From: Xylanimonas allomyrinae
GTDB taxonomy: Bacteria; Actinomycetota; Actinomycetes; Actinomycetales; Cellulomonadaceae
Reading direction: 5' to 3'
DNA length: 64,000 bases
NCBI RefSeq assembly: GCF_004135345.1
Contig: NZ_CP035495.1
Span: forward strand, 2,232,001 to 2,296,000
Of this stretch, positions 19,511-63,717 are shown piece after piece. The notes under the pieces were generated by a model that worked only from the letters and a program-made list of their open reading frames with translations, was not told the DNA's origin and searched no databases. Numbering within the stretch: position 1 is the stretch's first letter; every line of letters begins with the position of its first letter. The translations under genes and the position numbers were made by a program.

Positions 19511-19578
19511 TCAGGTCGGCATTCCGTCGTCGGGTCGTGCGCCCGGGGGCACGAGTAGACGACGGAGTGCCGACCTGA
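19511..19578. repeat. Dispersed palindromic element, copy 1
   Basis: A 68-nt near-perfect inverted repeat with outer arms TCAGGTCGGCA and TGCCGACCTGA. The inner arms are TCCGTCGTC and GACGACGGA, and the GC-rich centre contains GTGCGCCCGGGGGCAC. It lies 7 nt after the MFS stop codon. Three further copies are at 61283, 62354 and 63651. Confidence 0.95.
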
Positions 19579-19665
19579 CCCGTCGTCCCCCGGGGGGACG
19601 GCGACGGGGCGGGAGTCGGGCGGTGGGGGGACGCGTCGTGGGGCCAGGGGTGTCAGCCTGGGGGC

Positions 19666-20370
19666 ATGAGTTCACTTCTGAGTGCCCGTGGCCTGGGCAT
19701 GGCCTACCGGGGCGCGCCGGCTGCGGCGCTCGACGGCGTCGACCTCGACGTGGCGGCGGGCGAGTCCGTCGCCGTCATGGGCGCCTCCGGCTCCGGCAAG
19801 ACGACCCTGCTGCACGTGCTCGCCGGCATCCTGCGCCCGACGTCGGGCACGGTCACCCTCCAGACCGCGCGGGGCCCGGTGGGCGTCCACGCGCTCGACG
19901 ACGCCGGGCGCTCGCGGCTGCGGCGCGAGGAGCTCGGCTTCGTGTTCCAGCAGGGCCTGCTGCTCGACGAGCTGAGCGCGCTCGAGAACGTGGCGGTCGC
20001 CCGCATGCTCAGCGGCGTGCCGCGCGCCCAGGCAGAGGCGGAGGCCGCGCAGTGGCTCGCCGCGCTCGGCCTGGCCGGGCTCGAGCAGCGGCGGCTCGGC
20101 GCGCTGTCGGGCGGGCAGGCCCAGCGCGTCGCGATCGCCCGGGCCCAGATCACCGGGGCCCGCCTGCTGTTCGCCGACGAGCCCACGGGCGCCCTCGACT
20201 CGCGCACCGGGGCCGAGGTGCTCGACCTGCTGCTGGGCGCCGTCGCGCAGGGGCGCACGCTCGTCGTCGTCACGCACGACGCCGGGATCGCCGCGCGCTG
20301 CGACCGCGTCGTCGAGCTGCGCGACGGGCGCGTCGTCGGGGACCGGCACCGTGCGGGAGCGCGGGCATGA
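19666..20370 (+). CDS. ABC transporter ATP-binding protein (MacB/LolD type)
   Basis: A 234-residue nucleotide-binding subunit with Walker A GASGSGKTTL, Q-loop FVFQQGLLLDELSALENV, signature LSGGQAQRVAIARA, Walker B LLFADEPTGAL and H-loop VVVTHD. The Q-loop sequence and 'RL....LGFVFQ' spacing are those of exporters that pair with FtsX-like permeases. It overlaps the downstream permease gene by 4 nt (ATGA), so the two are made together. The likely role is export of lipids, peptides or antibiotics. Confidence 0.9.
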   Translation: MSSLLSARGLGMAYRGAPAAALDGVDLDVAAGESVAVMGASGSGKTTLLHVLAGILRPTSGTVTLQTARGPVGVHALDDAGRSRLRREELGFVFQQGLLLDELSALENVAVARMLSGVPRAQAEAEAAQWLAALGLAGLEQRRLGALSGGQAQRVAIARAQITGARLLFADEPTGALDSRTGAEVLDLLLGAVAQGRTLVVVTHDAGIAARCDRVVELRDGRVVGDRHRAGARA

Positions 20371-21701
20371 CCACGCTCGCCCTCGCCCGCCTGTTCGCGC
20401 GCCGCACCGAGGGCGACCGGCTCGCCTCCGCGCTCCCCGTCGCCTCGTTCGCGCTCGTCACGGCGCTGCTGCTCGTCGTGCTGGGCGGCGCGCGGGCGTT
20501 CTTCCGGATGCCGGGGCCTGAGGCGGGCACGTACCAGGTGCTGGCCGTGACCGCGCTGACGCTGCTCGTGGTGCCGCTGTTCACGCTCGGCGTGGCGGCC
20601 GCGAAGAACGCGGCCCGGCGCCGCGACGACCGGTTGTCGTCGCTGCGCCTGCTCGGTGCGACGACACGCACCGTCTCGCTGCTGACCGTCCTGGAGGCTG
20701 CGGGCGGCGCGCTCACTGGGGCCGTCGCGGGAACCGTGCTCTATGCCGCGCTCGCCCCGCTGGTCGGGCTGCTGCACTTCGCGGGCAGGCCGCTGGGGGC
20801 ACAGGTGTGGCTGCCCTGGTACTGGCTGCCGGCGGTGTGGGCCGGCGTGGCGCTGGTCGCGGCCGGGTCGGCGGCCGTGGGGCTGCGTGGCGTGGCGCTC
20901 ACCCCGCTCGGGGTCCGCACGCGGCAGCGGCCGGGCCGGGCCGGCTGGTGGCGGGCGGTCGTGGCGGTCGTCGTCGTGCTGCTGAGCGCGGTGACGACGG
21001 CTGCGCTGCGCGAGCTCGGCTCACGGTGGGGGTTCGCCGCGATCCTCGCGGGTGTCGCCGGGGCGTTCGGCTGCGCGCTGCTCGCGCTCGACGCCGTCGG
21101 GCCCTGGTACGTGCGGGTGCGTGCGCGCCGCCTGCACCGGCGTGCGGGAGACGTGCCGCGCCTGCTGGCGGCCCGGATGATCCTCGAAGACCCGAAGGCC
21201 GCATGGCGGCAGGTCGCCGGGGCCAGCGTGACGACGTTCGTCGGCGTGGTCGCCGGTGCCGGGCTCGCACTGGTCCAGCGCGACCCCACGTCGCGCTCCG
21301 AGGACGTGCTGTTCACCGACATCCGCACGGGCGTGTTCCTCACGCTCGTCATCTCGTTCCTCATGGTGGCGTGCACCGTGGCCGTCAACCAGGCGACGGC
21401 GACGCTGGACCGGGCGCGCGTGCACGTGTCGCTCGACCGGCTCGGCGTGCCGCCCGCGCTGCTCGCGCAGGCCTCGCGGCGCTCGGTCATGTCGGTGCTG
21501 TGGACGGTCGTGGTGGGCTCGGCGGCCGTGTCCGTGGTGCTCGTGTTCCCGATCGTGGGGGCGGCGGTGCTGATGCGCCCGCTCGCGGTGGGTGTCGTCG
21601 TCGCGGTGTTCGCGGGCGGGTTCGCCCTGGTGCGCGCCGGGGCGTCGGTCGCGGCACGGCTCGTGCCGGGGATCCTGGCGAGGCCCGAACGGGTGCTGTA
21701 G
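20367..21701 (+). CDS. FtsX-like ABC transporter permease
   Basis: A 444-residue membrane protein with about 8-10 hydrophobic segments arranged as in FtsX/MacB-type permeases. The cytosolic motif RRDDRLSSLRLLGATTRTVS matches the 'R...E....ALGAT' coupling helix that contacts the ATPase. A second copy, LDRARVHVSLDRLGVPPALL, precedes the C-terminal membrane pair. It is the partner of the overlapping ATPase gene. A strong hairpin follows the stop codon. Confidence 0.85.
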   Translation: MTTLALARLFARRTEGDRLASALPVASFALVTALLLVVLGGARAFFRMPGPEAGTYQVLAVTALTLLVVPLFTLGVAAAKNAARRRDDRLSSLRLLGATTRTVSLLTVLEAAGGALTGAVAGTVLYAALAPLVGLLHFAGRPLGAQVWLPWYWLPAVWAGVALVAAGSAAVGLRGVALTPLGVRTRQRPGRAGWWRAVVAVVVVLLSAVTTAALRELGSRWGFAAILAGVAGAFGCALLALDAVGPWYVRVRARRLHRRAGDVPRLLAARMILEDPKAAWRQVAGASVTTFVGVVAGAGLALVQRDPTSRSEDVLFTDIRTGVFLTLVISFLMVACTVAVNQATATLDRARVHVSLDRLGVPPALLAQASRRSVMSVLWTVVVGSAAVSVVLVFPIVGAAVLMRPLAVGVVVAVFAGGFALVRAGASVAARLVPGILARPERVL

Positions 21702-21710
21702 CGAACGCCG

Positions 21711-21749
21711 AGGCCCCGCCCGGGATCTGGTGGATCCCGGGCGGGGCCT
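21711..21749. terminator. Strong bidirectional terminator
   Basis: Perfect 17-bp arms (AGGCCCCGCCCGGGATC and its complement) with a 5-nt loop lie between the convergent permease and LPXTG-protein genes. There is no U tract, as usual in high-GC actinobacteria. Confidence 0.85.
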
Positions 21750-21766
21750 GGCCCGCACGGCCTCGA

Positions 21767-24700
21767 TCAGGCCCTGCGGCGCCGGAAGACGCCGACGGCC
21801 ACCCCGGCCAGCGTCACCAGCGCGATCCCGACGGCCGGCGGTACGCCGCCCGTCCTTCCTGGCCCGCCTGTGAGCGGGAGCTGGAGGTACAGCTCGTCCG
21901 GCACGACCAGAGGCCGTTCCACCGGGTTCTCGGTGCACCGCGCGTCGCCGGCCGGGCACGCGTCGGGTGCCCGTTCGCCCGTGGCGGTCACCACGTTGCG
22001 CAGCACGGCCGACTGCGGCCCGTCGTGCGCAACCTGCACGGTGTAGCTGACGGTCGCCGTCGCCCCGGCGGGCAGGTAGCCGGCAACCCGGATGACCTGC
22101 GCGTCCTCGTCGAGCCTCGCGGCGATCGGGACGTCGGCGCCCGGTCCCGTCTGGAGCGACCCGGGCACGATCGCGGCGTCGTCGAGCACGTCCGCGAGGT
22201 GGTCGGTGAGGTCGACGGTCGCCTCGGTCCCCCCGCCGTTGCGGAGCGTGATCGTGTACCGCACGGCCTGCTCGCCCTGCACGGTGGTGCCGTTGCCGAC
22301 GTCGGGCGACTTGGTCACGGTGAAGCCCTGGTTCAGCAGCCGCACGCCGGCGGCGTCGCCGGCGACGAGCACCGGGCCGCCCGGGTCGAGCGGGTCGTCG
22401 CCGGCCTTGACGGCCTGCGCGCTCGCGGTGTCGACGACGACGCCGGGGGCCGAGTCGTCGTAGACGACGTCGTACCGGCGGCACTCGCTCTGCCCGACGG
22501 CGAGCGCCGCCACGCCGAACCCGCCCAGATCGGGGTGCAGGTCGTCGGACACGACGACGTCGTGCAGCACGCCCTGGCCCGTGTTGGTGACGCACACGCG
22601 GTACGGCACCGGCTCGCCGACGGCGTACACCGGGTAGCCGGCGGCGTCGTCCGCGTCGAGCCACGACGCGTCGTCGTCGGGGTCGGCGCCGGGGCTGAGC
22701 ACCGACTTGCGGACCACCGCCGAGGAGAACGGCGCCACCGTGACCACCGCCGACGCGCGCATGGCGAGGCGGGTCCTCCCCGCGCGTGCCGTCGCCGCAT
22801 TCTCCAGCACGTCGTTGGCGCTCATCCCCTGCGTCCGGTACTCGACCTGGAAGCTCCGGATCCCCTGCGGGGCGAGGCTGCCGCCGATCACGCGGATCGC
22901 GGTCGGGTGCGGGGTCGGGTCGGTCGTCCAGCCCACCGTGTTCCCGGTGACCGATCCTGCGGAGCCGTTGCTCGCGCCGGCCGGGTCGGCCGAGATGAGC
23001 GACGGGTCCGCCTGCGTGTAGTACACCGTCGAGCCGGGGTCCGCGTCGACTGCCGTGATCTCGTAGGAGCCCGTGAACTGCGTCCTCCGCCCGTCGCCCA
23101 CATAGGGCAGCACGTCGATGACGTCGGTGAAGGATTGCGGCACCGGGTCGGCCGAGGACACCGCCACCTGCCAGGTGCCCGTTCCCGTGCCCGTGCCGTC
23201 CGGGTTCGCGATCACCGGCGAGCCGGAGGTCTTCGACAGCCGGGTCACGCCCATGTCCATGATCCACACGGGTGCCGAGCTGTTCGCCGTCGTGCCGTCC
23301 ACGGTGGCCCGGACGGAGTCGGTGACGACCGCGCCCGGTGTGGCGCCCGCGGGCAGCGTCACGTCGAAGGAGAGCTGTTCGGGGCGGTTGACCGCGAGCC
23401 CGTCGAACACCCAGGTGAGCACCTGGCGGCCGCCCGCCACCGTGACCTTCGGCGTGGCCGTCGCCGATCCGGGGACGTACATGACCCCGGGTGGCAGCGT
23501 CTCGACGAGCTCGAAGCCGTTCGCGACGCGGATGGCGTCCGCGTTGCCGCGCGCCTCGTAGGTCAGCGAGTACCGGACCGTCGCCCCGGGCAGCGCGGCG
23601 GCCTGGTCCACGGTCTCGGTGACGACGGGCCGGGTGGCCACGACGCGCAGCACGTCGCGCATGTGGCTGACCCACGGGTAGCGCAGCCCTGGCGTGGGCA
23701 GAGGCGTTCCCAGGTCGCTCCCGCCCACCCGGGTGTAGTACCGCCAGTCGGCCGCGGCCAGCGTGGTCGTCGTGGCGTTGGCGTACGTGGCCCACATCCA
23801 GACGTCCTGGCCGACCGGGGTGCCAGGCTTGATGACGGAGACGACGTCGAGGCCGACCCGGTCGGCGCGGACGCGTTCGTTGATCTGGTAGACGGCGCGG
23901 ACGGCCTTGACCGAGCTCCGGTCGGCCGGAACCTGGGAGGTCCAGCCGTTCGCGGCTCCGCACCCGCGCCACGCGTCGGGGTTGTAGGCGGCGCTGCGCG
24001 GGTCCATCTGGGGGTCGGACCCGACGTAGTACTCGATGGTGGCGGTCGCGACGCTGCCGACCGCCTCACCGGAGTCGAGCGTGAGGCTCGCCGACTCGAA
24101 CGTCACGTACTTCGGGTCGAGGATGCTGCACAGGCCACCCGTGCGGTCGGAGGCCGCCGAGGCAGGGGCGGACCGGTAGGCGAACCCGACCCGCTGGGAG
24201 ACCCGGGCGCCGATCGGGGCGGTGTACGTGTTGGTGAGGGCACCGGCGTTCGACCCGCTGACCGAGGGGGTCCACCAGCCCGAGATCGTCCCCGACGTCC
24301 ACAGCACCGACGCCGCGTTGTTCTTCGGGTCGTCCTTGACGAGGGTGTGGTTCTGATCCTGCGCGGTGTACTCCGGAGCGCTCGCGGTGATCGCCACGTT
24401 GCCCGTGGCTGCCGTCGTGACCTGTCGCAGGACGATCTCCCCGGACGCCACCGCGGCGGTCCCCGCGGGCAGCAGCTTGCCCCGGGAGTCCTTCGTGGGT
24501 CGCGTGACCTGGGAGTAGTCGATGCCCGACAGGTGCATCACGACGACGGCGTCACCGGACTGGGGCGTCTTCTCGCGCACGCTCACCGTGCACGACCTGA
24601 CGAACGGCGCGGTGCGGTCCGGTTCGTGCCCGCCGCCCGACCAGGGGTGTCCGGCGACGGGCCCCGACGTGAACGCCCCGCACGACAGCGCCTGCCAGTC

Positions 24701-25363
24701 CCCGCTGACGGAGCCGTCGACCTGGATCTGGATGTCGATGTCCTGCGGACCGGCGGCCGCACGCCGGTTGTGGAACAACGTCCACTGGAACGTGAACACG
24801 CGCCCGGTGCCGTCCTGGTAGGAGTTGGGTGACGCGTCTCCCCAGGCCATGTCGAGGCCGAACGGGGTCGCGATGGGAACCGGGTCGAGCGTGACCTCCT
24901 CGCCGCCGTAGCTCCCCGACAGCTCGACGGCCTCGCCGCCGACGCCGTCGGCCACGACCGTGGTCGCCAGCCGCAGCGCGGTGCCCTCGGCCTGCGTCCC
25001 CAGGTTGCAGACGAGGCTTCGCCCGTCGGCGGAGATACCTGACGGCGGCGTCACGCCATCGACCCGGCACGCGATCGGGAGCCTGTCGAACGTGCCGTGG
25101 ACCACCGTGAACGTCGCGGTGACGTTGTCGACCGCCGCGGGCTGGTCCCCGTCGTCGCCGACGTTGACGCTCAGGTACCAGTTCGCGGTCACCGAGCTGG
25201 CGACCACGACGACGTCCGGCACCGCGGCGCCCCACTCCCCCACCAGGAGCGCCTCGGCACCCACCGCCGGCAGGGGTGCCGCGATCAGCGCGAGCACTGC
25301 TGCGAGCGCCGCCACCCCGGCAGCGCGGGCACCACGCCACACGCCGTCACCGCCCCGGCCCAT
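21767..25363 (-). CDS. Large LPXTG cell-wall-anchored adhesin-like protein with DUF11 repeats
   Basis: A 1198-residue secreted protein. The ATG at 25363 follows GGAGG. A signal peptide (GVAALAAVLALIAAPLPAVGAEA) comes first, then long beta-rich modules. The C-terminal third contains DUF11-type repeats typical of Gram-positive surface proteins (PVPYRVCVTNTGQGVLHDVV, KSPDVGNGTTVQGEQAVRYT, VRYTITLRNGGGTEATVDLT). It ends with sorting signal LPLTG, a hydrophobic helix and RRRRA. Sortase would attach it to peptidoglycan. It is transcribed away from the LuxR regulator across a 315-bp gap, which suggests control by that regulator. Confidence 0.85.
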   Translation of the reverse strand: MGRGGDGVWRGARAAGVAALAAVLALIAAPLPAVGAEALLVGEWGAAVPDVVVVASSVTANWYLSVNVGDDGDQPAAVDNVTATFTVVHGTFDRLPIACRVDGVTPPSGISADGRSLVCNLGTQAEGTALRLATTVVADGVGGEAVELSGSYGGEEVTLDPVPIATPFGLDMAWGDASPNSYQDGTGRVFTFQWTLFHNRRAAAGPQDIDIQIQVDGSVSGDWQALSCGAFTSGPVAGHPWSGGGHEPDRTAPFVRSCTVSVREKTPQSGDAVVVMHLSGIDYSQVTRPTKDSRGKLLPAGTAAVASGEIVLRQVTTAATGNVAITASAPEYTAQDQNHTLVKDDPKNNAASVLWTSGTISGWWTPSVSGSNAGALTNTYTAPIGARVSQRVGFAYRSAPASAASDRTGGLCSILDPKYVTFESASLTLDSGEAVGSVATATIEYYVGSDPQMDPRSAAYNPDAWRGCGAANGWTSQVPADRSSVKAVRAVYQINERVRADRVGLDVVSVIKPGTPVGQDVWMWATYANATTTTLAAADWRYYTRVGGSDLGTPLPTPGLRYPWVSHMRDVLRVVATRPVVTETVDQAAALPGATVRYSLTYEARGNADAIRVANGFELVETLPPGVMYVPGSATATPKVTVAGGRQVLTWVFDGLAVNRPEQLSFDVTLPAGATPGAVVTDSVRATVDGTTANSSAPVWIMDMGVTRLSKTSGSPVIANPDGTGTGTGTWQVAVSSADPVPQSFTDVIDVLPYVGDGRRTQFTGSYEITAVDADPGSTVYYTQADPSLISADPAGASNGSAGSVTGNTVGWTTDPTPHPTAIRVIGGSLAPQGIRSFQVEYRTQGMSANDVLENAATARAGRTRLAMRASAVVTVAPFSSAVVRKSVLSPGADPDDDASWLDADDAAGYPVYAVGEPVPYRVCVTNTGQGVLHDVVVSDDLHPDLGGFGVAALAVGQSECRRYDVVYDDSAPGVVVDTASAQAVKAGDDPLDPGGPVLVAGDAAGVRLLNQGFTVTKSPDVGNGTTVQGEQAVRYTITLRNGGGTEATVDLTDHLADVLDDAAIVPGSLQTGPGADVPIAARLDEDAQVIRVAGYLPAGATATVSYTVQVAHDGPQSAVLRNVVTATGERAPDACPAGDARCTENPVERPLVVPDELYLQLPLTGGPGRTGGVPPAVGIALVTLAGVAVGVFRRRRA

Positions 25364-25678
25364 CGCATTCCTCCGTTTCCACGCGCCGCCCCCACCGGGC
25401 CACGCACGGCAGGATCGTGGGCCCCTCGGCGAGCGCCCACGACCGGGGGCGGCGAGACTTCCCCCTCGGTTCACCCCTGGGCCAGGCGTCGTTTTCGGCC
25501 ACGCCGCGCGGCGCGTGCCGGGGCGCCGACGGCGTTCGCGCAGGCCAGCCCCGCCCCTCGGCGGGGTCTTTTCCACGCGTGGCACCGAACGGACGCCGGG
25601 CGATACGTTCTCGGCTCGACCCCCCCCCGGCACAGGGCACGACCCGACGCCGGGCACCCTCGCGAACTGGAGAACCCG
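25364..25678. promoter_or_regulatory. Divergent interval between the LPXTG protein and LuxR genes
   Basis: A 315-bp gap that must hold both promoters. The GGAGG ribosome site of the surface-protein gene and the GGAG site of the LuxR gene are clear. A run of eight or more C residues spans about 25619-25628. I see no convincing -10/-35 pair or operator. Confidence 0.4.
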
Positions 25679-27198
25679 TTGCCCGAGAACCCCGGGCTGG
25701 GCCAGGTGCTCGCACGGCCGACCGCGCCCGCGCACCGCCACCCCCACCCGTCCACGCTCGACGCCGCCGCGTCGCAGGTGCTGAGCGCATGCCTGCCAGG
25801 GTCGGCCCCGGTACGCCGGTCGGCGCTCGACGCCGTCCTCGACGCCCCTCTGCACTCCGCCCGCCGGTCCTGCTCGTGCTCGACGGCGCGGCTCACGGCC
25901 GCGCACGTGCGCGCCCTGCTGGTCTCGGGCCACGCCGCGCGGGCGGCCGGGTACGCCGACCGTGCCGCGCTCGCCGCGGTGGGCTCGGGCGCGGCGGCCG
26001 CACACGCGCCGCTCGCCGAGCGGGCGCTCGCCTATGCGGCGATCGCCGAGGCGTACCTGGCGACGGGGCGGCTCGAGGACGCGCTGACGTGCGCGCGCCG
26101 CGCCTGCGAGTACGCGGCCGAGGCGGGCGACGATCGCGTCCTGGCCGCGGGCCACGCCCTGCTGAGCCTCGGGCTCGCGACGCACGGCGAGGTGGCCGCG
26201 GCGCAGGAGCACCTGGAGGCCGCGGAGCGCCTGCGTGCCGCGCACGCCTGGGGGTCGACGACGTGGCCGCTCGCGTTCGCGACGGTGCTGCTGGCGATCC
26301 GCCGCAGCGACACCGCCTCGATGGAGGCCGCGCTGCGCGATCTGGAGGCGTCGGGGCAGGCGTCGACGCGCGACCACGTGCAGCGGGCGGTCCTCGGCCT
26401 CGGCCGCTGCCACCTGTACGGGGTGCGCGGCGACTACCCGCGCGCCATCTCGACGGCGCAGACGCTCACCCACGGCAGCCTCGCGCCGCTGGTGCCGCCC
26501 GCGCTGCTCGATCAGGCTGTCGCCGTGGAGGCGCTGTCCCTGCTCCAGCTCGGCAACCCTGCGGCGGTGCTCACGCTCCTGCACGAGCGCCCGTCGCCCC
26601 CGACCACCCGGTGTGCTTCGACGTCCTCGTGGCGACCGCGCACCTCCAGCTCGGCAACCCGCGTCAGGCCCTGCGCGCCACCGAGGGCTGCATCCGCGGC
26701 AACCCACGCCACAGCCTGGCCTCGCTGCCGTCGGTGTTCCTGCGCCGCGCCCTCGCTCAGGAGGCCCTGGGGCTGACGCACGCCGCCGACGCCGACTTCT
26801 CGCGCGCCGCCCACCTGGCCGCCGAGCTGGGGGCGGTCACGCCGTCGCTGGGCGTCAGCCTGGGGGCGGTCGGCGCGTTGCACGCGCGCCTGCGCGCCGC
26901 CGAGCCGGAGTTCGCGCGCACGCTCGCCGCGTCGCTGCCGCCCGACTCGAGCCGCCCGGCGCCCCGCCCCCTGGCGTTCGACCCGCCGTGCCTGACCAAG
27001 CGGGAGACGTTGCTCGCCGGGTGGCTGGGGACGGAGCGGACGCTGACCGAGATCGCGTCGGCGCTCCACGTCTCGCCGCACACGATCAAGAGCCAGTCGC
27101 GGTCGCTGTACCGCAAGCTCGGGGTCGGTACGCGGACGGAGGCGGTGGCGGCGCTCGATCGGACGGGGTTGTTCCCCGCCCCGGCGGATGCCGCGTGA
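25679..27198 (+). pseudogene. LuxR-type regulator with helical repeats, frame broken near 26599
   Basis: The TTG at 25679 follows CTGGAGAAC and starts MPENPGLGQVLARP. The first ~305 residues are alpha-helical, TPR-like repeats (ALAYAAIAEAYLATGRLEDA, AVEALSLLQLGNPAAVLTLL). After a shift into another frame they continue in the same style (FDVLVATAHLQLGNPRQALR). The protein ends with a LuxR helix-turn-helix: CLTKRETLLAGWL, LTEIASALHVSPHTIKSQSR and SLYRKLGVGTRTEAVAAL. One base more or less in the CCCCC at 26597-26601 rejoins it. There is no receiver domain or N-terminal NTPase. It probably controls the divergent surface-protein gene. Confidence 0.7.
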
Positions 27199-27240
27199 CA
27201 GGCGCCGCGTGACGGACGCCGCGTGACGGGCGCCGCGTGA
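27188..27240. repeat. 14-bp tandem repeat at the end of the LuxR gene
   Basis: The unit GCCGCGTGACGGGC, with small changes, is repeated about four times and overlaps the stop codon. Each unit contains an in-frame-looking GCG TGA, so extra copies would keep the same C-terminus. Confidence 0.7.
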
Positions 27241-27261
27241 CGGCCCGCACCCGGGCAAGAG

Positions 27262-27334
27262 TGCGCCTGAAAGGATTCGAACCTTCGACAACCCGCTTAG
27301 GAGGCGGGTGCTCTATCCACTGAGCTACAGGCGC
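27262..27334 (-). tRNA. tRNA-Arg (anticodon CCT)
   Basis: A 73-nt minus-strand cloverleaf. The acceptor arm GCGCCTG pairs with CAGGCGC with discriminator A. The D-arm contains GCTCAGTGGATAGAGC. The anticodon stem CCCGC/GCGGG carries loop CTCCTAA, giving anticodon CCT for AGG. The T-arm is AAGG-TTCGAAT-CCTT. CCA is not encoded. Confidence 0.95.
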
Positions 27335-27372
27335 TCGCGGCCACTAGCGTACCGGGGCGTTCCGGGCGGGTC

Positions 27373-28563: not shown

Positions 28564-28590
28564 GCCTTGACTGTAGCGGAGTCTCACGCA

Positions 28591-28612: not shown

Positions 28613-28656
28613 GCCGTGCGGGGTTGCTGCGCGGCTCGACGAGGAGAAGACAACCC

Positions 28657-29847: not shown

Positions 29848-29887
29848 CGAGCCCCGCCGTCGGCACCATGCCCGACGGCGGGGCTCG
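29848..29887. terminator. Strong hairpin between xylA and xylB
   Basis: Perfect arms CGAGCCCCGCCGTCGG and CCGACGGCGGGGCTCG with a loop of about 8 nt. It lies in the 125-nt gap between two genes of one pathway and so may act as a partial terminator or an mRNA stabiliser that sets the xylA to xylB ratio. Confidence 0.65.
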
Positions 29888-32746: not shown

Positions 32747-32792
32747 CCGCGGCCTGCCCGCCGTCGCCCGAGAGGCGGCGGGCAGGCCGCGG
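32747..32792. terminator. Terminator after the dehydrogenase gene
   Basis: Perfect 16-bp arms (CCGCGGCCTGCCCGCC and its complement) with a 14-nt loop, 18 nt after the stop codon. Confidence 0.85.
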
Positions 32793-54973: not shown

Positions 54974-55121
54974 CGTTACCTCCGTCGTCGCAGGTGCGCC
55001 GCGCAGTCGGCGCCCGGGCCGCTTGGTCAAGACTATCGAACGTCCTGGCAAAGCAGCATAGAACGCGTCTCGCCACGCGCGGGCCACGCGTGACGCCAGC
55101 GGACCCCGTCGCAGACGACGA

Positions 55122-55153
55122 CGCCCCGGCCCGCCGAGAGGCGGACCGGGGCG
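55122..55153. terminator. Terminator after the first NlpC/P60 gene
   Basis: Hairpin CGCCCCGGCCCGCC-gagag-GCGG-a-CCGGGGCG, 16 nt past the stop codon in the minus direction. Confidence 0.75.
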
Positions 55154-55168
55154 TGTGAAGGTGCGGCG

Positions 55169-55918: not shown

Positions 55919-55932
55919 GTGATCCCTCTCCG

Positions 55933-56075
55933 GAACGCCTGCGAGGTGAGCTGTCGGGTTCGGGTAGGAGATGTACCCGGCCGGTCGCGGCCCGGAGGCC
56001 GTGCCCGGCTTCACCCCAAGGCCGTCGAGACGGCCGGAGAACATGGTTCCCCCGTCCCCGTCAAACGGAAGGTCG
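55933..56075 (-). ncRNA. c-di-AMP riboswitch (ydaO/yuaA type), first copy
   Basis: On the minus strand it contains GACGGGGGAACCATG, GGGGTGAAGCC and, at its 3' end, CCCGAACCCGACAGCTCACC followed by TCGCAGGCG. These are the conserved blocks of the ydaO class, in the right order. It ends about 15 nt before the GTG of the first NlpC/P60 gene. In actinobacteria this class commonly regulates wall hydrolases; c-di-AMP binding usually turns expression off. Confidence 0.88.
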
Positions 56076-56271
56076 TCACCACATCCCGGTGACGGGGCTC
56101 GGCGTCCGGGTGTGGACCGGGCTGGAGAACCAGCCCGGCGAGATCGACGGTATCGGACGCTCGACCAATTGTCACGGCCGGATCACGAACCGATCGGATT
56201 TCACCACGGCCGCTGCTCGCCGAGTGCCACCGCATCGGCCCGGCAGGGGCCCTCGAACCCTGTCCGCGTAC

Positions 56272-56309
56272 GCCTCGGGGCCCCGTCGCACGCGACGGGG
56301 CCCCGAGGC
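56272..56309. terminator. Terminator after the second NlpC/P60 gene
   Basis: Perfect 18-bp inverted repeat (GCCTCGGGGCCCCGTCGC and its complement), 20 nt past the stop codon. Confidence 0.88.
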
Positions 56310-56329
56310 TCTCGTTCCGGGTGAGCGGT

Positions 56330-57129
56330 TCAGCCGACGCGGATGAAGACCGGGTTCGACTGCCAGAGGCTGCGGAACTGGATCGACATCCCAGGCCGCG
56401 GCGCGTCGATCTGCATGCCGTTGCCCGCGTAGATGGAGACGTGGCCGGGCGTCCAGATGATGTCACCCGGTCGCGCGTCGGCCGCAGAGACGACGGTCCC
56501 GGCCGAGCGCTGGCCGCTCGACGTGCGCGGCAGGCTGATGCCCACCTGAGCGAACACGTACTGGGTGAAGCCCGAGCAGTCGAAGCCTGCGGGAGTGGTC
56601 CCACCCGCGAGGTAGGGCACGCCCACGTAGCGCCCGGCGATCGACACGACGTCCGAGCCGGCCGCGAAGTCAGGTGCAGGGGCCGCCGTCGCCGTCTGGG
56701 CGGGAGCGGCCGCGGTCGTGGTCCGCTCCGTCGTGCGCGAGGTCGCCGCGGCGCGCGCGGGACGGGCGGCGGCACGCGGCTGGGGCGCCGGGGTGACCTC
56801 GACGGTCGCGACACCGCCGTCGGGGCGATCGCCTCGACCTCGACCTGCGCGTCCGCAGCGACGGTCACGACGGGTGCGGCCTCCAGGGCCTGGCGGGCCT
56901 GGGCCGTCAGGGCTCCCAGGTCCACGGTGCTGAGCCGGGCTCCGGCGTCGTCGCGGGCCGGAGCCGCCTGCGCGGTACCGGCACCGAGGGTCGAGATGAT
57001 GAGGCCGCCAGCGGTGGCCACGACGGCGGCGCGTCTACCTGCGCCCGCGCCGACGGTCTGGGCGATCTCCGTGAGGGGGGTCACGGGACGACGGGCGGCG
57101 CGGTGCCGCGCGACGTTCGCTGCGCTCAC
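56330..57129 (-). pseudogene. NlpC/P60 peptidoglycan endopeptidase, frame broken near 56822
   Basis: This is a paralogue of the preceding gene, with the same layout. The GTG at 57129 begins VSAANVARHRAARRPVTPL, and the signal segment is RRAAVVATAGGLIISTLGAG. A linker with APVVTVAADAQVEVEAIAP follows, after which the frame shifts at a CCCC run. The domain continues in another frame with AGRYVGVPYLAGGTTPAGF, the catalytic Cys in FDCSGFTQYVFAQ and the His in TPGHVSIYAGNG. Corrected, it has about 266 residues. Its own c-di-AMP riboswitch lies upstream. The break is at a homopolymer, so an error is likely. Confidence 0.8.
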
Positions 57130-57147
57130 AAGCTCTACCTCTCCATG

Positions 57148-57285
57148 CCGCCAACGAGGTGAGCTGTCGGGTTCGGGCAGGAGATGCACCCGGCCTCGGC
57201 CGGCCCGCAGGCCGCCCAAGGCTTCACCCCAAGGGCTCCGTCTCCGGGAGCCCGCAAGTGGGTCCCCCGCCCCTGCCTTCGGAGG
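57148..57285 (-). ncRNA. c-di-AMP riboswitch (ydaO/yuaA type), second copy
   Basis: On the minus strand it contains GGGGCGGGGGACCCACTTGC, TTGGGGTGAAGCC and CCCGAACCCGACAGCTCACC followed by TCGTTGGCG, the same blocks as in the first copy. It ends about 18 nt before the GTG of the second NlpC/P60 gene. The two copies share their conserved blocks but differ in their variable stems. Confidence 0.88.
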
Positions 57286-57440
57286 TCAGTCCGTAGCGCG
57301 GGCGGTGGCAGGGTTCGGCGTCCGTTCGCGCGCACTCGGGGGAAACCCTGAGTGCGTAAGGGACCGTACCCGAGCCGGTCCCGCGATGTCACGCTCTGGT
57401 CACGAATTCAGTCGGAACCGACCGGCACCCAGCGCGCAGT

Positions 57441-57470
57441 GCACGGTCGCTGGCGCGCAGACGACCGTGC
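57441..57470. terminator. Terminator of the DtxR-family gene
   Basis: Perfect 9-bp arms GCACGGTCG and CGACCGTGC with a 12-nt loop, 8 nt past the stop codon. Confidence 0.7.
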
Positions 57471-57477
57471 GGGCGCG

Positions 57478-58206
57478 TCAGCGCTGCGTGACGAACAGGT
57501 GGCGAGCGGCGTCCTCCGGCAGACCGATCGCGTCGTCGCGGCCCGCGACCACGACCATGTACGTCCCGTCGGCCAGCGACGCCGACACGCTCGCGCCCGG
57601 CACCAGCCCCGCACCCGAGAGCCGCACGAGCAGCTCGACATCGGTCTGCAGCGGCTCTCCGATCCGCTGGAGCACCAGCTCCACCGGGCCGCCGGCGCCC
57701 GGGGCCGCGACGGCCGCCAGCGCCTCGAACACGCTCGGCAGCGGCGCGACGCCCGCGAGGTAGGGCTGCTCGCGGCCGGCGTCGTCCGTGCCGAGCTCGG
57801 ACAAGCCGGGGATCGGGTTGCCGTACGGGTCCTGGTGCGGGTGATCGAGCAGCGTGAGCAGGCGACGCTCGACGTCCTCGCTCATCACGTGCTCCCACCG
57901 GCACGCCTCGGTGTGGACCTGCTCCCAGTCGAGCTTGATGACGTCGGTCAGCAGCCGCTCGGCCAGGCGATGCTTGCGCATGACCCGGCGGGCCTTGTCC
58001 ATGCCGGGAGCCGTGAGCTCCAGGTGCCGGTCCCCGGTGACGACGACGAGGCCGTCACGCTCCATGCGCGCGACCGTCTGCGACACCGTGGGGCCCGAGT
58101 GCCCCAACCGCTCCGCGATCCGGGCGCGCAGCGGGGTGATGCCCTCTTCGACGAGCTCGTAGATCGTCTTCAGGTACATCTCGGTGGTGTCGATCAGGTC
58201 GGCCAC
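57478..58206 (-). CDS. DtxR/IdeR-family metal-dependent repressor
   Basis: A 242-residue protein. The N-terminal winged helix (DTTEMYLKTIYELVEEGITP, then RIAERLGHSGPTVSQTVARM) is followed by a dimerisation domain with metal ligands in HTEACRWEHVMSEDVERRL, and a C-terminal SH3-like domain with VSASLADGTYMVVVAGRDDA. This is the full three-domain layout of iron- or manganese-responsive repressors. The GTG at 58206 follows GGAAGGA. It is divergent from serC. The metal cannot be fixed by eye, although DLID.TEMYL is common to IdeR. Confidence 0.9.
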   Translation of the reverse strand: MADLIDTTEMYLKTIYELVEEGITPLRARIAERLGHSGPTVSQTVARMERDGLVVVTGDRHLELTAPGMDKARRVMRKHRLAERLLTDVIKLDWEQVHTEACRWEHVMSEDVERRLLTLLDHPHQDPYGNPIPGLSELGTDDAGREQPYLAGVAPLPSVFEALAAVAAPGAGGPVELVLQRIGEPLQTDVELLVRLSGAGLVPGASVSASLADGTYMVVVAGRDDAIGLPEDAARHLFVTQR

Positions 58207-58309
58207 GAGCTTTCCTTCCGGTCTCCAGGATCCACCGCGCACCGCGCGGACGACGCGCGGCGGAACGCACGACGAGACGGCGCGGGGGCGGGGCAGCAGG
58301 CCCGCTTAG

Positions 58310-59461
<1,152 letters not shown>

Positions 59462-59471
59462 CGCACGGCCC

Positions 59472-60740
59472 TCACGCGGTGGCCGTCTGGTAGACCACCT
59501 CGACGTGCGGGCGCGGGTGCAGGTGCGGGCGCAGGCGCAGGTTCCAGTTGCGCACGGCCCACACGGAAGCCGCGCCGACCACCAGGAACGTCGCGATCGA
59601 CCCGACGAGGATCGACCAGCGCGGCCCGAACTGCGAGCCGATCCACCCCACGAGCGGCGACCCGATGGGCGTGGCGCCCTGGAACACCATCATGTACAGC
59701 GCCATGACGCGCCCGCGCATGGCCGGGTCGACCGACGTCTGGAGGGTCGCGTTCGCGGCCGTCATCATGGTCAGCGACGAGAGCCCCACGGGCACGCAGA
59801 AGATCAGGTAGCTCCAGAACGTGGGCATCAGCGCGTTGAGCGTCGTCGCCACCGCGAACGCCAGCCCTGCCCCGAGCACGAGCCGCACGCGCGGCCGCTC
59901 GCGGCGCGCGGCCAGCAGCGCACCCGTCAGCGAACCGATCGCGAGCACCGACCCGAGCACGCCGAACTCACCGGCCCCCTTGCCGAACTCGACGCGGGCC
60001 ATCATGGCGCTCGTGAGCTGGAAGTTGAGGCCGAACATCGACACGACGGCCATGACCGCCATGATCATGACGATGTCGCTGCGCCCCCGGACATAGCGCA
60101 TGGCCTCGCGGATCTGGCCCTTGGACCGCGGCGCCGAGGGCAGCACGCGCAGCGTCGCGGTGTTCATCACCGCGAGCGCCACGATGGTCGCCGCGAACGA
60201 GACGCCGTTGATCAGGAAGACCCAGCCCGCGCCGACGGCGGCGATGAGAAGACCGGCGGCGCCAGGTCCGATGAGACGCGCAGCGTTGAACGAGGCGGAG
60301 TTCAGACCGATCGCGTTGGGCAGGTTGTCCGCCGGCACGAGCTCGGCGACGAACGTCTGGCGCACCGGCGAGTCGATCGCCGAGGCGACCCCCAGCAGGA
60401 ACGCGAGCGTGTACACGTGCCACAGCTGCACGGTGCCGCTGAGGGTGAGGGCGGCGAGCACGAACGCGAGCACGCCCATGGCTGCCTGGGTGGCCATGAG
60501 GAGCTTGCGGCGCGGGAGCCGGTCGGCCAGGAGCCCCGCGTAGGGCGACAGCAGGAGGAACGGCAGGAACTGCAGCGCCGTCGTGATGCCCACCGCGGTG
60601 CCCGAGTTGTTCGTCAGGTGGGTCAGCACCACCCAGTCCTGCCCGACGCGCTGCATCCACGTGCCGACGTTGGCGACGAGGGCCGCGCCGAACCACAGGC
60701 GGTAGTTGGGCTGGCGGAGGGAGGTGAAGGTGGAGGCCAT
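59472..60740 (-). CDS. MFS drug exporter (MFS_3 family)
   Basis: A 422-residue protein with about 12 membrane helices. The start FTSLRQPNYRLWFGAALVAN and VGTWMQRVGQDWVVLTHLT are the standard N-terminus of this group. Motif A is PYAGLLADRLPRRKLLM, and DSPVRQTFVAELVPADNLPN follows. It lies 68 nt downstream of a MarR-type regulator in the same direction, so it is probably an efflux pump under MarR control. It is distinct from, but related to, the MFS protein at 18238. Confidence 0.88.
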   Translation of the reverse strand: MASTFTSLRQPNYRLWFGAALVANVGTWMQRVGQDWVVLTHLTNNSGTAVGITTALQFLPFLLLSPYAGLLADRLPRRKLLMATQAAMGVLAFVLAALTLSGTVQLWHVYTLAFLLGVASAIDSPVRQTFVAELVPADNLPNAIGLNSASFNAARLIGPGAAGLLIAAVGAGWVFLINGVSFAATIVALAVMNTATLRVLPSAPRSKGQIREAMRYVRGRSDIVMIMAVMAVVSMFGLNFQLTSAMMARVEFGKGAGEFGVLGSVLAIGSLTGALLAARRERPRVRLVLGAGLAFAVATTLNALMPTFWSYLIFCVPVGLSSLTMMTAANATLQTSVDPAMRGRVMALYMMVFQGATPIGSPLVGWIGSQFGPRWSILVGSIATFLVVGAASVWAVRNWNLRLRPHLHPRPHVEVVYQTATA

Positions 60741-60808
60741 GGGTCCTTCGGTTCGACGGTCAGGCAGGGGGCGGGTTTCGGGCGCGTGAGCGCTCGGGGT
60801 CTGGGCTC

Positions 60809-61234
60809 TCAGCAGGCGGCGAGGTCGGCGAGCAGCGCGCCGGCGCGGTCGAGAAGCGCGCGGTCCTCGGCGCTCAGCGTGTCGAGCTGGCGGGCGAGCC
60901 AGGCGTCGCGGCGCCGCCGGGTCTCCTCGACCTCACGCCGCCCGGCCTGGGTGAGCCGCACGACGACGAGCCGCCCGTCGGTGGGGTGCTCGGCCTTTGC
61001 GACCATGCCGAGCTCGGCGAGCGCGTTGACGGTGCGGGTCATCGACGGCGGCCGGACGCGCTCGCGCTGGGCGAGCGCGCCGGGCGTCTGGTCGCCGTGG
61101 CGCATGAGGTAGGTGAGGACGCCGAACTGCGCATCGGGCAGGTCGGCTTCGCCTCGTTCGGCACGAAGCCGCCGCACGAACCGGCCGACGGAGACGCGCA
61201 GCTCGCTCGCGAGAGGAGCAGGTGCAACAACCAT
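60809..61234 (-). CDS. MarR-family transcriptional regulator
   Basis: A 141-residue winged-helix protein: AQFGVLTYLMRHGDQTPGAL, then ERVRPPSMTRTVNALAELGM (recognition helix) and HPTDGRLVVVRLTQAGRREV (wing with the DGR motif). It probably represses itself and the MFS exporter downstream until a drug or phenolic ligand binds. A perfect 8-bp inverted repeat 13 nt upstream of the ATG is its likely operator. Confidence 0.9.
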   Translation of the reverse strand: MVVAPAPLASELRVSVGRFVRRLRAERGEADLPDAQFGVLTYLMRHGDQTPGALAQRERVRPPSMTRTVNALAELGMVAKAEHPTDGRLVVVRLTQAGRREVEETRRRRDAWLARQLDTLSAEDRALLDRAGALLADLAAC

Positions 61235-61246
61235 TCCCTTACCTTA

Positions 61247-61269
61247 GGTCATTACCTCTGCTAATGACC
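61247..61269. promoter_or_regulatory. Putative MarR operator
   Basis: Perfect inverted repeat GGTCATTA-cctctgc-TAATGACC, AT-rich against a GC-rich background and placed directly before the marR gene. ACCTTAGG beside it adds further symmetry. The size (23 bp) fits a MarR dimer. Confidence 0.75.
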
Positions 61270-61282
61270 ACCCCTCCGGGCC

Positions 61283-61350
61283 GTCGCCTCGGCAGTCCGT
61301 CGTCCCCGCGTGCCCCCGGGCGCACGCGCTGACGACGGACTGCCGACGTG
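61283..61350. repeat. Dispersed palindromic element, copy 2
   Basis: A 68-nt inverted repeat with arms CGGCAGTCCGTCGTC and GACGACGGACTGCCG. By its asymmetric centre it is in the opposite orientation to the other three copies. It lies in the interval between marR and the nuclease-like gene. Confidence 0.93.
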
Positions 61351-61430
61351 ACTCCCGGCAACCCACAGGGTTGTGCACAGGGAGGCAGGGCGGGGGCAGC
61401 ACCTGGGGCGGGCGCGGGCAGGGTGAGCGG

Positions 61431-62456
61431 ATGGAGGGATCACCGAGACTGCTCATCTCCCGCGAGCACGACCGAGACGAGCTGCGCCGCGACCTGGCCG
61501 CAGGGCGACTGGTCCGGGTGCGGCGCGGTGCGTACGCGCCGGGACCCGCATCCTTCGACGCGCAACGAGCCCGGGTCCTCGCCGTCCACCGGCAGCTGGT
61601 CGCACCGCACGTCTTCGGCTTCGCCTCGGCGGCCGTGGTCCACGGGCTGCACTCCTGGAACCGCCCGGAGCAGGTCCACGTCGTCGTGGGCTCGCGGCCC
61701 TCGGGCCGCAGCGCGGCCGACATCGCGCGGCATACCGCCGAGCTCGGCCCCGCCGCGGTCACGACCGTCGACGGCCTGCCGGTCACGACCCTGACGCGCA
61801 CCGTCGTCGACTGCGCGCTGACGATGCACCCGATGGAGGCCCTCGTCATCGCCGACGGCGCGATGAACCGGCTGGAGTTCGACCGCGACGCGGCGCTCGC
61901 CCAGGTCGCCGCCCGGCGCCGTCCCAACGGCAAGGCCCGCGCGGACTGGGTGCTGCGGAACGCTGCGGCGGGGACGCGCTCCGTCTGGGAGACCTGGCTG
62001 CGCTACCTGCCCTTGCGCGAAGGGTTTCCCACACCGGTGGTCGAGCCTCCCGTCGTGACGAGGCTCGGCGTGATGCACCCGGACATCGGGTGGCCCGACC
62101 TCGGTCTGTACGTCGAGTTCGACGGCCGGGTCAAGTACCGGGACGACGGCCTCCGGCCGGGGCACAGCGCGGAGCGCGAGCTCCTGGCGGAGAAGCGCAG
62201 GTTCGACGCCATCCGGGAGACAGGCGTGAACCCGCTGCGCGTCATGGCCGCCGACGGCCCCTACCGCTACATGGAGCGCCTGAGGTCCCGCCTCCCCCCG
62301 CACCTCAGATCCACATTGCGGGTGAACCCCGGCTCCCCCTTCCGCCCCAGCGCGTCAGGTAGGCAGTTCGTCGTCAGCGCGTGCGCCCGGGGGCACGCGG
62401 GGACGACGAACTGCCGACCTGACAAGGACGACCCTCGTCTGGGCAAGGCTCTTTAG
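61431..62456 (+). CDS. AbiEi/DUF559-like protein with PD-(D/E)xK nuclease domain
   Basis: A 341-residue protein. The N-terminal winged-helix region (LISREHDRDELRRDLAAGRL followed by VRVRRGAYAP) and PHVFGFASAAVVHGLHSW match AbiEi antitoxin-like proteins. LPVTTLTRTVVDCAL follows. The C-terminal part is a VSR/DUF559-type nuclease fold with HPDIGWPDLGLYVEFDGRVK (Asp, Glu-x-Asp-Gly) and LLAEKRRFDAIRETG (Glu-Lys-Arg). There is no AbiEii toxin nearby; solitary members are common in actinobacteria. The last ~34 residues are encoded by a palindromic repeat and the bases after it. The ATG lies after AGGGTGAG. Confidence 0.75.
   Translation: MEGSPRLLISREHDRDELRRDLAAGRLVRVRRGAYAPGPASFDAQRARVLAVHRQLVAPHVFGFASAAVVHGLHSWNRPEQVHVVVGSRPSGRSAADIARHTAELGPAAVTTVDGLPVTTLTRTVVDCALTMHPMEALVIADGAMNRLEFDRDAALAQVAARRRPNGKARADWVLRNAAAGTRSVWETWLRYLPLREGFPTPVVEPPVVTRLGVMHPDIGWPDLGLYVEFDGRVKYRDDGLRPGHSAERELLAEKRRFDAIRETGVNPLRVMAADGPYRYMERLRSRLPPHLRSTLRVNPGSPFRPSASGRQFVVSACARGHAGTTNCRPDKDDPRLGKAL
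62354..62423. repeat. Dispersed palindromic element, copy 3
   Basis: A 70-nt inverted repeat with arms GTCAGGTAGGCAGTTCGTCG and CGACGAACTGCCGACCTGAC (one mismatch). It lies inside the 3' end of the nuclease-like gene and is read as GRQFVVSACARGHAGTTNCR. The AGTTCG/CGAACT pair replaces AGTCCG/CGGACT of other copies on both arms. Confidence 0.95.
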
Positions 62457-62465
62457 GATGAAGCG

Positions 62466-63632
62466 GTGAAGATCGCCATCGCCGGTACCGGCTATGTGGG
62501 ACTGTCCAACGCCGTCGTCCTCGCGCAGCACCACGAGGTGGTCGCGGTCGACATCGACCCGGGCAAGGTCGACCTGATCAACCGGCGCCGCGCGCCCATC
62601 GTCGACACCGAGCTCGAGCAGTACCTGAGCGAGAAGCCGCTGTCGCTCACCGCCACGACGGACGGCGACAACGCGTACGCCCACGCCGAGCTCGTCGTCG
62701 TCGCGACTCCCACCAACTACGACGAGGTGACGCAGTTCTTCGACACCTCGAGCGTGGAGGGTGTCATCGACCAGGTCTTGGCGGTCAACCCGGCCGCGCT
62801 CATCGTCGTGAAGTCGACGGTTCCGGTCGGATTCACCACCCGCATGCTCGCCGAGCACGACGGCGCAGCGATCGTCTTCTCGCCCGAGTTCCTGCGCGAG
62901 GGCCGGGCGCTGTACGACAACCTCCACCCGTCTCGCATCGTCGTCGGCGACCGCTCCGACCGGGGCCGGCTGTTCGCGAACCTGATGCTGGAAGGTGCGA
63001 TCGACCAGGACGTGCCGGTGCTGCTGACCGATCCCACGGAGGCCGAGGCGATCAAGCTGTTCGCCAACACCTACCTGGCGCTGCGCGTGGCCTACTTCAA
63101 CGAGCTCGACACGTACGCGGCCACCCGCGGGCTCGACACCGCGCAGATCATCGAGGGCGTGGGGCTTGACCCGCGCATCGGGTCGCACTACAACAACCCG
63201 TCGTTCGGGTATGGCGGCTACTGCCTGCCGAAGGACACCAAGCAGCTGCTGGCCAACTACCAGGACGTGCCGCAGAACCTCATCAGCGCGATCGTCGATG
63301 CCAACACGACACGCAAGGACTTCATCGCCGCCGACATCCTGCGTCGAAAGCCCCAGGTGGTCGGCATGTACCGGCTCATCATGAAGTCGGGTTCGGACAA
63401 CTTCCGGGCCTCGTCCATCCAGGGTGTGATGAAGCGGCTCAAGGCGAAGGGCATCGAGGTCGTGGTCTACGAGCCCACCTTGGAGCAGGAGGAGTTCTTC
63501 CGCAGCGAGGTCATCCGCGACCTGGAGGAGTTCAAGGCCCGCTCCGACGTCATCGTGGCGAACCGCCGCACCGAGTCTCTCGCGGACGTCGCCGCGAAGC
63601 TCTACACCCGCGACATCTACGGCCGCGACTGA
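62466..63632 (+). CDS. ugd: UDP-glucose 6-dehydrogenase
   Basis: A 388-residue enzyme oxidising UDP-glucose to UDP-glucuronate with two NAD+. The Rossmann start is [55 protein letters not shown] and [20 protein letters not shown] are conserved, and the catalytic Cys is in [13 protein letters not shown] (about residue 253). UDP-glucuronate feeds capsule or teichuronic-type polymers. The GTG start is 6 nt after TAGGAT, so it is probably leaderless. No other polysaccharide gene is near. The palindromic element follows the stop codon. Confidence 0.95.
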
Positions 63633-63650
63633 CACCGCCTCCGTCCGGCT

Positions 63651-63717
63651 CAGTTCGGCAGTCCGTCGTCAGCGCGCGGCCCGGGGGCACGCGGTGACGA
63701 CGGACTGCCGAACTGAG
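63651..63717. repeat. Dispersed palindromic element, copy 4
   Basis: A 67-nt inverted repeat with arms TCAGTTCGGCAGTCCGTCGT and ACGACGGACTGCCGAACTGA. It lies between the convergent ugd and PTS IIA genes, where it could also act as a bidirectional terminator. AGTTCGG/CCGAACT replaces AGGTCGG/CCGACCT on both arms. Confidence 0.95.

What the first reader, a model, noticed from the sequence alone, without database searches (positions are those of the whole stretch)
19511..63717. A 68-nt palindromic intergenic element in four copies with compensatory stem changes
Copies at 19511, 61283, 62354 and 63651 share one long imperfect hairpin with centre GTGCGCCCGGGGGCAC. Where the copies differ, both arms often differ together: AGTCCG/CGGACT against AGTTCG/CGAACT; AGGTCGG/CCGACCT against AGTTCGG/CCGAACT; GCGTGC/GCACGC against TCGTGC/GCACGA. 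Paired changes mean the fold is selected, or that copies spread as hairpins. Three copies in 2.4 kb and one 42 kb away suggest many more in the genome. I know no named family that it matches.
Basis: seen in the sequence. Interest (0 to 1): 0.8.

Follow-up and report, generated by a model that had tools for sequence, protein, structure and literature searches.

The report
Dispersed palindromes bracketing a nuclease-like gene
The hairpins are copies of a scattered palindrome whose private sequence also sits on both sides of a gene for a DNA-binding, nuclease-like protein, an arrangement repeated with different sequences in related bacteria, which suggests an undescribed kind of small spreading DNA element.

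Summary
In detail: four ~70-bp palindromes lie at the stated places, about 15 copies of this family plus a second family lie in the genome, and paired arm changes exceed shuffles. RNA-fold selection is not the best reading. Two of the four copies bracket a gene (61431-62456) for an AbiEi-like winged-helix protein with a Vsr-like, PD-(D/E)XK-type C-terminal domain. Fetched homologues in the family have matching palindromes on both sides in 50 of 85 loci (2 of 117 control ORFs, 0 of 170 shuffled flanks); 12 of 29 loci elsewhere in the phylum have both sides. Sequences are private to each gene lineage, but 83 of 95 family arms repeat at exactly 19 bp, so a palindrome is two forward and two reverse units. 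Palindrome likeness tracks protein identity. One syntenic site occurs empty, with palindromes but no gene, and with the gene in either orientation. Best reading: a REPIN/RAYT-like system with an unrelated protein; binding is likely, nuclease-driven spread is inferred. No RAYT-type gene was found in this genome, and ten literature searches found no description.

The parts
19510..19579 (+). Solo palindrome of family A, 7 nt after the stop of an MFS gene and upstream of an ABC-transporter ATPase gene
   Evidence: the same intergenic spot holds an element of other sequence in G008 (degenerate) and G005, and none in G002, G001, G010
61283..61352 (-). Palindrome on the 5' side of the AbiEi/Vsr-like gene, between it and a divergent MarR-family gene
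   Evidence: palindromes in the corresponding place in G002 and G008
61431..62456 (+). Gene for the presumed cognate protein: AbiEi-like part, then a Vsr-like PD-(D/E)XK-type domain; this copy's frame runs through palindrome 3 before its stop
62354..62423 (+). Palindrome on the 3' side of the gene; each arm holds two 19-bp units (from 62354 and 62373)
62466..63632 (+). UDP-glucose/GDP-mannose dehydrogenase-family gene lying between palindromes 3 and 4; in G002, G001, G010 and G008 it points the other way relative to the MarR gene
63649..63717 (+). Solo palindrome between convergent gene ends; lies inside a longer inverted repeat 63639-63727

Best explanation
The palindromes are the recognition and spreading units of a two-part element: a gene, apparently one per palindrome family in the genomes I looked at (not counted systematically), coding for an AbiEi-like winged-helix protein fused to a Vsr-like nuclease-type domain and bracketed by two palindromes, plus solo palindromes scattered over the genome. 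SHOWN: the bracketing, the private match between gene and palindrome, the 19-bp unit spacing (in the family), the solo copies, gene presence/absence and inversion at two syntenic sites, and conservation of the acidic/lysine motif. LIKELY (by homology to AbiEi and Rv2827c, which bind 23-bp inverted repeats): each unit is bound by one winged helix, so a palindrome holds four subunits in two mirror pairs. INFERRED: the nuclease-type domain nicks or cuts the palindrome, probably when it is extruded as a hairpin or cruciform, and repair of that break copies the palindrome elsewhere or homogenises existing copies, much as RAYT proteins are thought to do for REPINs. Because a palindrome is both a direct and an inverted repeat of any other copy, recombination between two copies can flip or delete the gene between them, leaving a solo palindrome.
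For: Both-side palindromes (score >=15) in 50 of 85 gene loci of the family; per side 68% upstream and 78% downstream against 13% of control sides; both sides in 2 of 117 control ORFs; 0 of 170 shuffled flanks (many control ORFs came from loci chosen because they hold elements, which works against me). Twelve of 29 fetched loci elsewhere in the phylum have both sides (slightly longer flanks, no control run for that set). Up/down partners alike: median similarity 0.78 against 0.17 between loci, own partner the best match in 40 of 51. Palindrome likeness follows protein identity over 67 genes: rho 0.30, 0 of 2000 permutations; at 70% identity or more 28 of 29 pairs are alike, below 50% a rounded fraction of 0.00 of 1746. 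Best self-match at 19 nt in 83 of 95 arms. Copies: 37-75 two-strand matches in each of 8 of 10 g7 genomes, 2 in one, 0 in one; 42, 22 and 13 in three genomes of another class. One syntenic site is empty in G135, holds a degenerate remnant in G078, palindromes without the gene in G114, the gene in one orientation in G123/G016/G140 and in the other in G130/G105/G062; G093 is broken across contigs there. A second site (MarR/UGD) lacks gene and palindromes in G010 and G001 and has both in G000, G002, G008, with the gene inverted in G008; in G005 the two flanks are far apart. E187, D218, E229, G232, R257 invariant in 86 of 86 family and 29 of 29 distant proteins; D231 in 114 of 115; K235 is K in 109 and H in 6. 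Folds: AbiEi 6y8q E 9e-6 and Rv2827c 1zel E 8e-5; the C-part alone gives AbaSI, Vsr and I-Bth0305I among the top nine rows, all with weak scores. AbiEi-type proteins bind inverted repeats (PMC7319586, passages).
Against: No biochemistry: neither binding nor cutting has been seen. C-domain fold hits are weak (best E 0.04, none <=0.001); AbiEi TM-scores are modest and the Pfam AbiEi matches of the window protein lie below the curated cut-offs. No target-site duplication or clean insertion boundary found. PD-(D/E)XK enzymes are known to hydrolyse DNA, not join it (recalled), so the joining step is unaccounted for. The gene-palindrome correlation partly reflects plain linkage, and related species are not independent. 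11 of 85 genes have no palindrome on either side at score 15, among them a third paralogue in this genome at 3615264. In the distant loci the 19-bp unit was not tested, and L353 and L354 show none by eye. Palindromes persist in G114 and G078 without a close gene in the listing.
Confidence: 0.6

Rival explanations
1. Operator-only reading: the protein is an orphan AbiEi-type autorepressor and the palindromes are its operators; solo copies are a regulon or drifting relics, and the nuclease-type domain plays no part in their spread.
For: AbiEi and Rv2827c bind inverted repeats in their own promoters, Rv2827c four of them (PMC7319586, passages); an upstream palindrome sits at a median 140 nt before the profile match (search limited to about 420 nt); 19-bp spacing looks like protein binding.
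Against: A palindrome is also present a median 25 nt after the profile match; some solo copies lie between convergent genes; of 20 G008 elements examined only 4 lie at sites occupied in G000; the nuclease motif is invariant.
Confidence: 0.2
2. Addiction or defence reading: the protein is a nuclease toxin or defence enzyme kept in check, titrated or guided by genomic palindromes, which act as decoys or self marks.
For: All 18 proteins of the alignment match PADLOC AbiEi models; nuclease-type domain.
Against: No AbiEii-like toxin gene among the neighbours scanned at the window site and the g7 site; no tblastn match in the plasmid and phage collections; it does not explain gene flipping and species-private copies.
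Confidence: 0.1
3. Hitchhiking: the palindromes are ordinary REP-like intergenic repeats spread by another machinery, and these genes merely insert beside or recombine into them.
For: Solo copies far outnumber gene-linked ones; some genomes have palindromes without a close gene.
Against: Gene lineages have their own palindrome sequence on both sides, also in loci of other orders and classes; no Y1 transposase found in this genome.
Confidence: 0.05
4. Selected RNA hairpin, such as a terminator or small RNA.
For: Strong pairing and compensatory changes: 14 of 31 pairs, 0 of 500 shuffles.
Against: No T-run terminator in 61000-64000; no Rfam match; convergent, tandem and divergent arrangements occur; an exact 19-bp direct repeat inside each arm is not needed for an RNA hairpin.
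Confidence: 0.05

Closest known systems
REPIN / RAYT (TnpA_REP) system
   Same: Dispersed intergenic palindromes in many copies; a partner gene flanked by its palindromes; distinct families side by side in one genome (for RAYTs: PMC3116915, passages).
   Different: No Y1_Tnp gene found in this genome; the partner protein is an AbiEi-like winged helix plus Vsr-like domain; in the family the unit is a 4 x 19-bp palindrome.
AbiE type IV toxin-antitoxin, antitoxin AbiEi and M. tuberculosis Rv2827c
   Same: N-terminal fold and family matches; AbiEi-type proteins bind pairs of 23-bp inverted repeats.
   Different: Extra Vsr-like C-terminal domain; no toxin gene among the neighbours scanned at two sites; palindrome on both sides and dispersed.
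Vsr-like nucleases (Vsr, AbaSI) and the homing endonuclease I-Bth0305I
   Same: Among the top nine fold rows for the C-terminal part (that all three share the Vsr fold is recalled) and an invariant E...D...E-x-D-G-x-x-K/H pattern.
   Different: Fused to an AbiEi part and linked to palindromes; weak fold scores; catalysis untested.
MITEs / solo LTRs
   Same: Small non-coding copies without the gene; palindromes without the gene at a site where relatives have palindrome-gene-palindrome (G114).
   Different: No transposase identified as partner, no target-site duplication seen.

Membership tests
REPIN/RAYT | Cognate Y1 (PF01797) transposase in the genome | tested here: not met
   0 matches at E<=0.001 in the own genome; control rings in 5 of 14 known genomes. 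Relatives were not searched
REPIN/RAYT | Dispersed palindromes in many copies with a gene flanked by them | tested here: met
REPIN/RAYT | Conserved GTAG-type tetranucleotide at the hairpin foot (recalled) | not tested
   None
AbiE type IV toxin-antitoxin | AbiEi-type fold | tested here: met
   6y8q E 9.2e-6, 1zel E 8.4e-5; PADLOC AbiEi in 18 of 18 proteins; Pfam AbiEi matches of the window protein below curated cut-off
AbiE type IV toxin-antitoxin | Adjacent AbiEii nucleotidyltransferase toxin gene | tested here: not met
   Neighbours are MarR and UDPG dehydrogenase in the window, YflT-domain and M24 peptidase genes at the g7 site; only these two sites were checked
Vsr-like PD-(D/E)XK nuclease | Fold and conserved acidic/lysine residues | tested here: inconclusive
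   Residues conserved, but fold hits weak (E 0.04-1.5)
Vsr-like PD-(D/E)XK nuclease | DNA cleavage | not testable with these tools
   None
MITE | Target-site duplication and parent transposon | tested here: inconclusive
   One filled/empty pair aligned, no clear duplication; spacers too diverged at the others looked at
Intrinsic terminator | GC stem followed by a T-run | tested here: not met
   0 found in 61000-64000; copy 1 was not scanned
Known structured RNA family | Rfam match at gathering score | tested here: not met
   Only two tRNAs and two c-di-AMP riboswitches in the window

The most novel reading that the evidence does not exclude
A phylum-wide class of mobile DNA in which an AbiEi-like winged helix fused to a Vsr-like nuclease recognises the repeated units of a private palindrome, cuts the extruded hairpin or cruciform and thereby copies and homogenises that palindrome across the genome, while the gene itself is bracketed, flipped and sometimes lost by recombination between palindromes: a REPIN-like system evolved with no transposase.
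Probability: 0.45. Interest if true: 0.92.

Novelty: categorically new. Interest (0 to 1): 0.85.

Why it matters
To my knowledge the spread of short palindromes through bacterial genomes has been tied to one enzyme class, the Y1 transposases behind REPINs. A second, unrelated solution that pairs an antitoxin-type DNA-binding protein with a nuclease-type domain would give a general rule for gene-plus-palindrome systems, offer many natural protein/site pairs for decoding winged-helix specificity, and suggest a function for a gene family present in 96 of 121 genomes of this family at E<=1e-30, of which none of the 18 members tested matches an NCBIfam model.

Tried and rejected
RAYT/IS200-type origin: no PF01797 gene in the genome. 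RNA family: no Rfam match. Terminator: no T-run near copies 2-4, and copies occur in several gene arrangements. Exact pattern for family A in 84,980 named species genomes: 0 hits; relatives carry diverged sequences and near records may be left out, so this does not show absence. Plasmid or phage carriage: no tblastn hit at 1e-5. Target-site duplication: none seen. Integron attC sites were considered from recall and set aside because the units here are direct repeats within an arm; not tested. The genus is probably Xylanimonas because a congener's chromosome length (3,742,776) equals the one I recall for X. cellulosilytica; this is recall. Literature: ten searches over openly licensed PMC papers; listings showed nothing of this kind. 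One of them held 37 papers, of which 12 were listed and none opened for it. I read find-passages of PMC3116915 and PMC7319586 only, so it may be described elsewhere.

Limits of the counts: the 86 gene loci are those fetched (23 genus loci and 63 family loci, taken from the top of the E-value list, seven duplicates dropped), not a random sample, and related species are not independent; one search used the 85 with full flanks. At score 17 both-side counts fall to 42 of 85 and at 21 to 32 of 85, with 19 and 28 on neither side. Hairpins were scored without gaps. Phylum counts are 29 fetched loci, best match per genome. Genome model searches scored only part of the first-look candidates, so copy numbers are lower bounds. 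Matches are two-strand and include gene-linked copies; places are roughly half. Distances are to the ends of the profile match, not to codons. Shared-site counts rest on blastn of about 400-nt flanks, so diverged shared sites could be missed. Gene arrangements come from a simple gene caller; 3 of 19 copies fell inside a predicted frame.
Full report
THE OBSERVATION. They are the only hairpins in the 64-kb window at score 20 or more in an ungapped scan. A covariance model of the four gives 39 two-strand matches in the 3.85-Mb genome. Read out, these are 15 places of the same family (A), 4 of a second family (B, TCTGGTCGTCGG...) with a different sequence, and two weak places not counted; B has a further copy beside its gene. 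Arm changes are paired far more than shuffles (14 of 31 pairs, 0 of 500; slid controls 2-5 pairs). A double-stranded palindrome shows this for any reason that keeps it symmetric, so it does not by itself show an RNA.

RELATIVES CARRY THE SAME DESIGN WITH OTHER LETTERS. The model hits 13 genomes, the own one included, of the 59 searched. Sequences read for 11 of those relatives (G011 gave no hairpin at the threshold) differ between species and genera but keep one design: an arm made of two similar units, then their mirror. Over palindromes beside homologues of the gene described below, 83 of 95 arms have their best self-match at a shift of exactly 19 nt (mean identity 0.65 against 0.20-0.32 at other shifts). 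Some have three or more units per arm by eye.

SITES. At the position of window copy 1, G008 (degenerate) and G005 have an element in the sequence style of their own species, while G002, G001 and G010 have none. Of 20 G008 elements examined (19 detected plus the degenerate one), 4 are at sites occupied in G000; of 12 G002 elements, 3. So positions turn over. Solo copies lie between convergent, tandem and divergent genes; 3 of 19 fall inside a predicted frame.

THE GENE. Copies 2 and 3 bracket one gene, 61431-62456. Homologues occur in 8 of 11 genomes of the genus, one to six per genome at E<=1e-30, and 14 of 26 loci show palindromes on both sides at the threshold used, each pair with its own sequence. 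In the wider family 96 of 121 genomes, own included, have the gene. Of 85 fetched loci with full flanks, 50 have palindromes on both sides and 11 on neither at score 15; controls give 2 of 117 ORFs with both, 13% of single sides, and 0 of 170 shuffled flanks. In the phylum sample 39 of 396 genomes, own included, have a match, and of 29 fetched loci 12 have both sides and 21 at least one; for these no separate control was run, the 19-bp unit was not tested, and some (L353, L354) show no unit repeat by eye. Within a family locus the two palindromes resemble each other (median 0.78) and not those of other loci (0.17; own partner best in 40 of 51). Palindrome likeness follows protein identity (67 genes, rho 0.30, 0 of 2000 permutations). 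Linkage alone would give part of that; it would not give the unlinked copies elsewhere in the genome, which match gene-linked palindromes in g7 (8 of 10 genomes with 37-75 two-strand matches, one with 2, one with none) and in three genomes of another class (42, 22 and 13 two-strand matches).

MOVEMENT SEEN AT TWO SITES. Between a MarR-family gene and a UDP-glucose dehydrogenase gene, G010 and G001 have neither gene nor palindrome, G000 and G002 have palindrome-gene-palindrome in one orientation and G008 in the other; in G005 the two flanks are far apart. In G000 the dehydrogenase gene, lying between copies 3 and 4, is itself turned round relative to G002, G001, G010 and G008; its right-hand neighbour in G000 maps elsewhere in G002, so this was not a simple local flip. 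In genus g7, one site between a YflT-domain gene and a convergent M24-peptidase gene is empty in G135 (stop codons one base apart), has a degenerate remnant in G078, palindromes without the gene in G114, the gene in one orientation in G123, G016, G140 and in the other in G130, G105, G062, with flanks collinear where both were recovered; G093 is broken across contigs there.

THE PROTEIN. AlphaFold gives a confident model (mean pLDDT 88.7). Foldseek finds AbiEi (6y8q, E 9e-6) and Rv2827c (1zel, E 8e-5), with modest TM-scores; all 18 aligned proteins match PADLOC AbiEi models, the window protein's Pfam AbiEi matches lie below the curated cut-offs, and none of the 18 matches an NCBIfam model. The C-terminal part alone gives only weak hits (E 0.04 and up), but three proteins that I recall as sharing the Vsr fold, AbaSI, Vsr and the homing endonuclease I-Bth0305I, are among the top nine rows. 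E187, D218, E229, G232 and R257 are invariant in 86 family and 29 distant proteins, D231 in all but one, K235 is K in 109 and H in 6. AbiEi binds a pair of 23-bp inverted repeats and Rv2827c four (PMC7319586, passages), which makes it likely that each 19-bp unit is one binding site.

READING. I take the palindrome as the binding and spreading unit and the gene as its partner. The comparison is REPIN/RAYT: RAYTs are single copy and associated with flanking REPs (PMC3116915, passages). Membership fails, since no Y1 transposase was found in this genome and the partner protein is of another kind; the resemblance is in how it would work. The step from cutting to copying is inferred, and no target-site duplication was found. 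Operator-only and decoy/defence readings remain open and are listed as rivals.

Noticed in passing
G000 C1: 1673558, 2590332, 2647055, 3030553 (L065, L069, L071, L073): A second palindrome family (B) with the same architecture, on both sides of its own paralogous gene at 1673732-1674667; at 2647055 extra tandem units precede the arm.
   Followed up: partly
G000 C1:3615264-3616247 (L264): A third paralogue of the gene in the same genome with no palindrome found on either side.
   Followed up: no
window 55921-56084 and 57134-57294 (-): Two c-di-AMP riboswitches (ydaO/yuaA) about 1.2 kb apart on the same strand.
   Followed up: no
window 62354-62456: The gene's frame runs through the downstream palindrome, so its last ~34 codons lie in the palindrome and the 33 nt after it; 6 of 56 genes with a downstream palindrome have a stop beyond the palindrome start.
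   Followed up: partly
window 62466-63632: UDP-glucose dehydrogenase gene inverted relative to four congeners and flanked by palindromes on both sides.
   Followed up: partly
L206:430-1500 (G010): At the site of window copy 1, G010 has about 1 kb of extra, apparently coding DNA instead of a palindrome.
   Followed up: no
window 21711-21749, 29848-29887, 32747-32792, 56272-56309: Shorter near-perfect GC-rich hairpins of other sequence, possibly ordinary transcript ends.
   Followed up: no
L164:1671-1764 (Knoellia sinensis): A 94-nt palindrome with repeated CTGTGCACTGCTGC-type units; I did not look for a neighbouring gene of this family.
   Followed up: no
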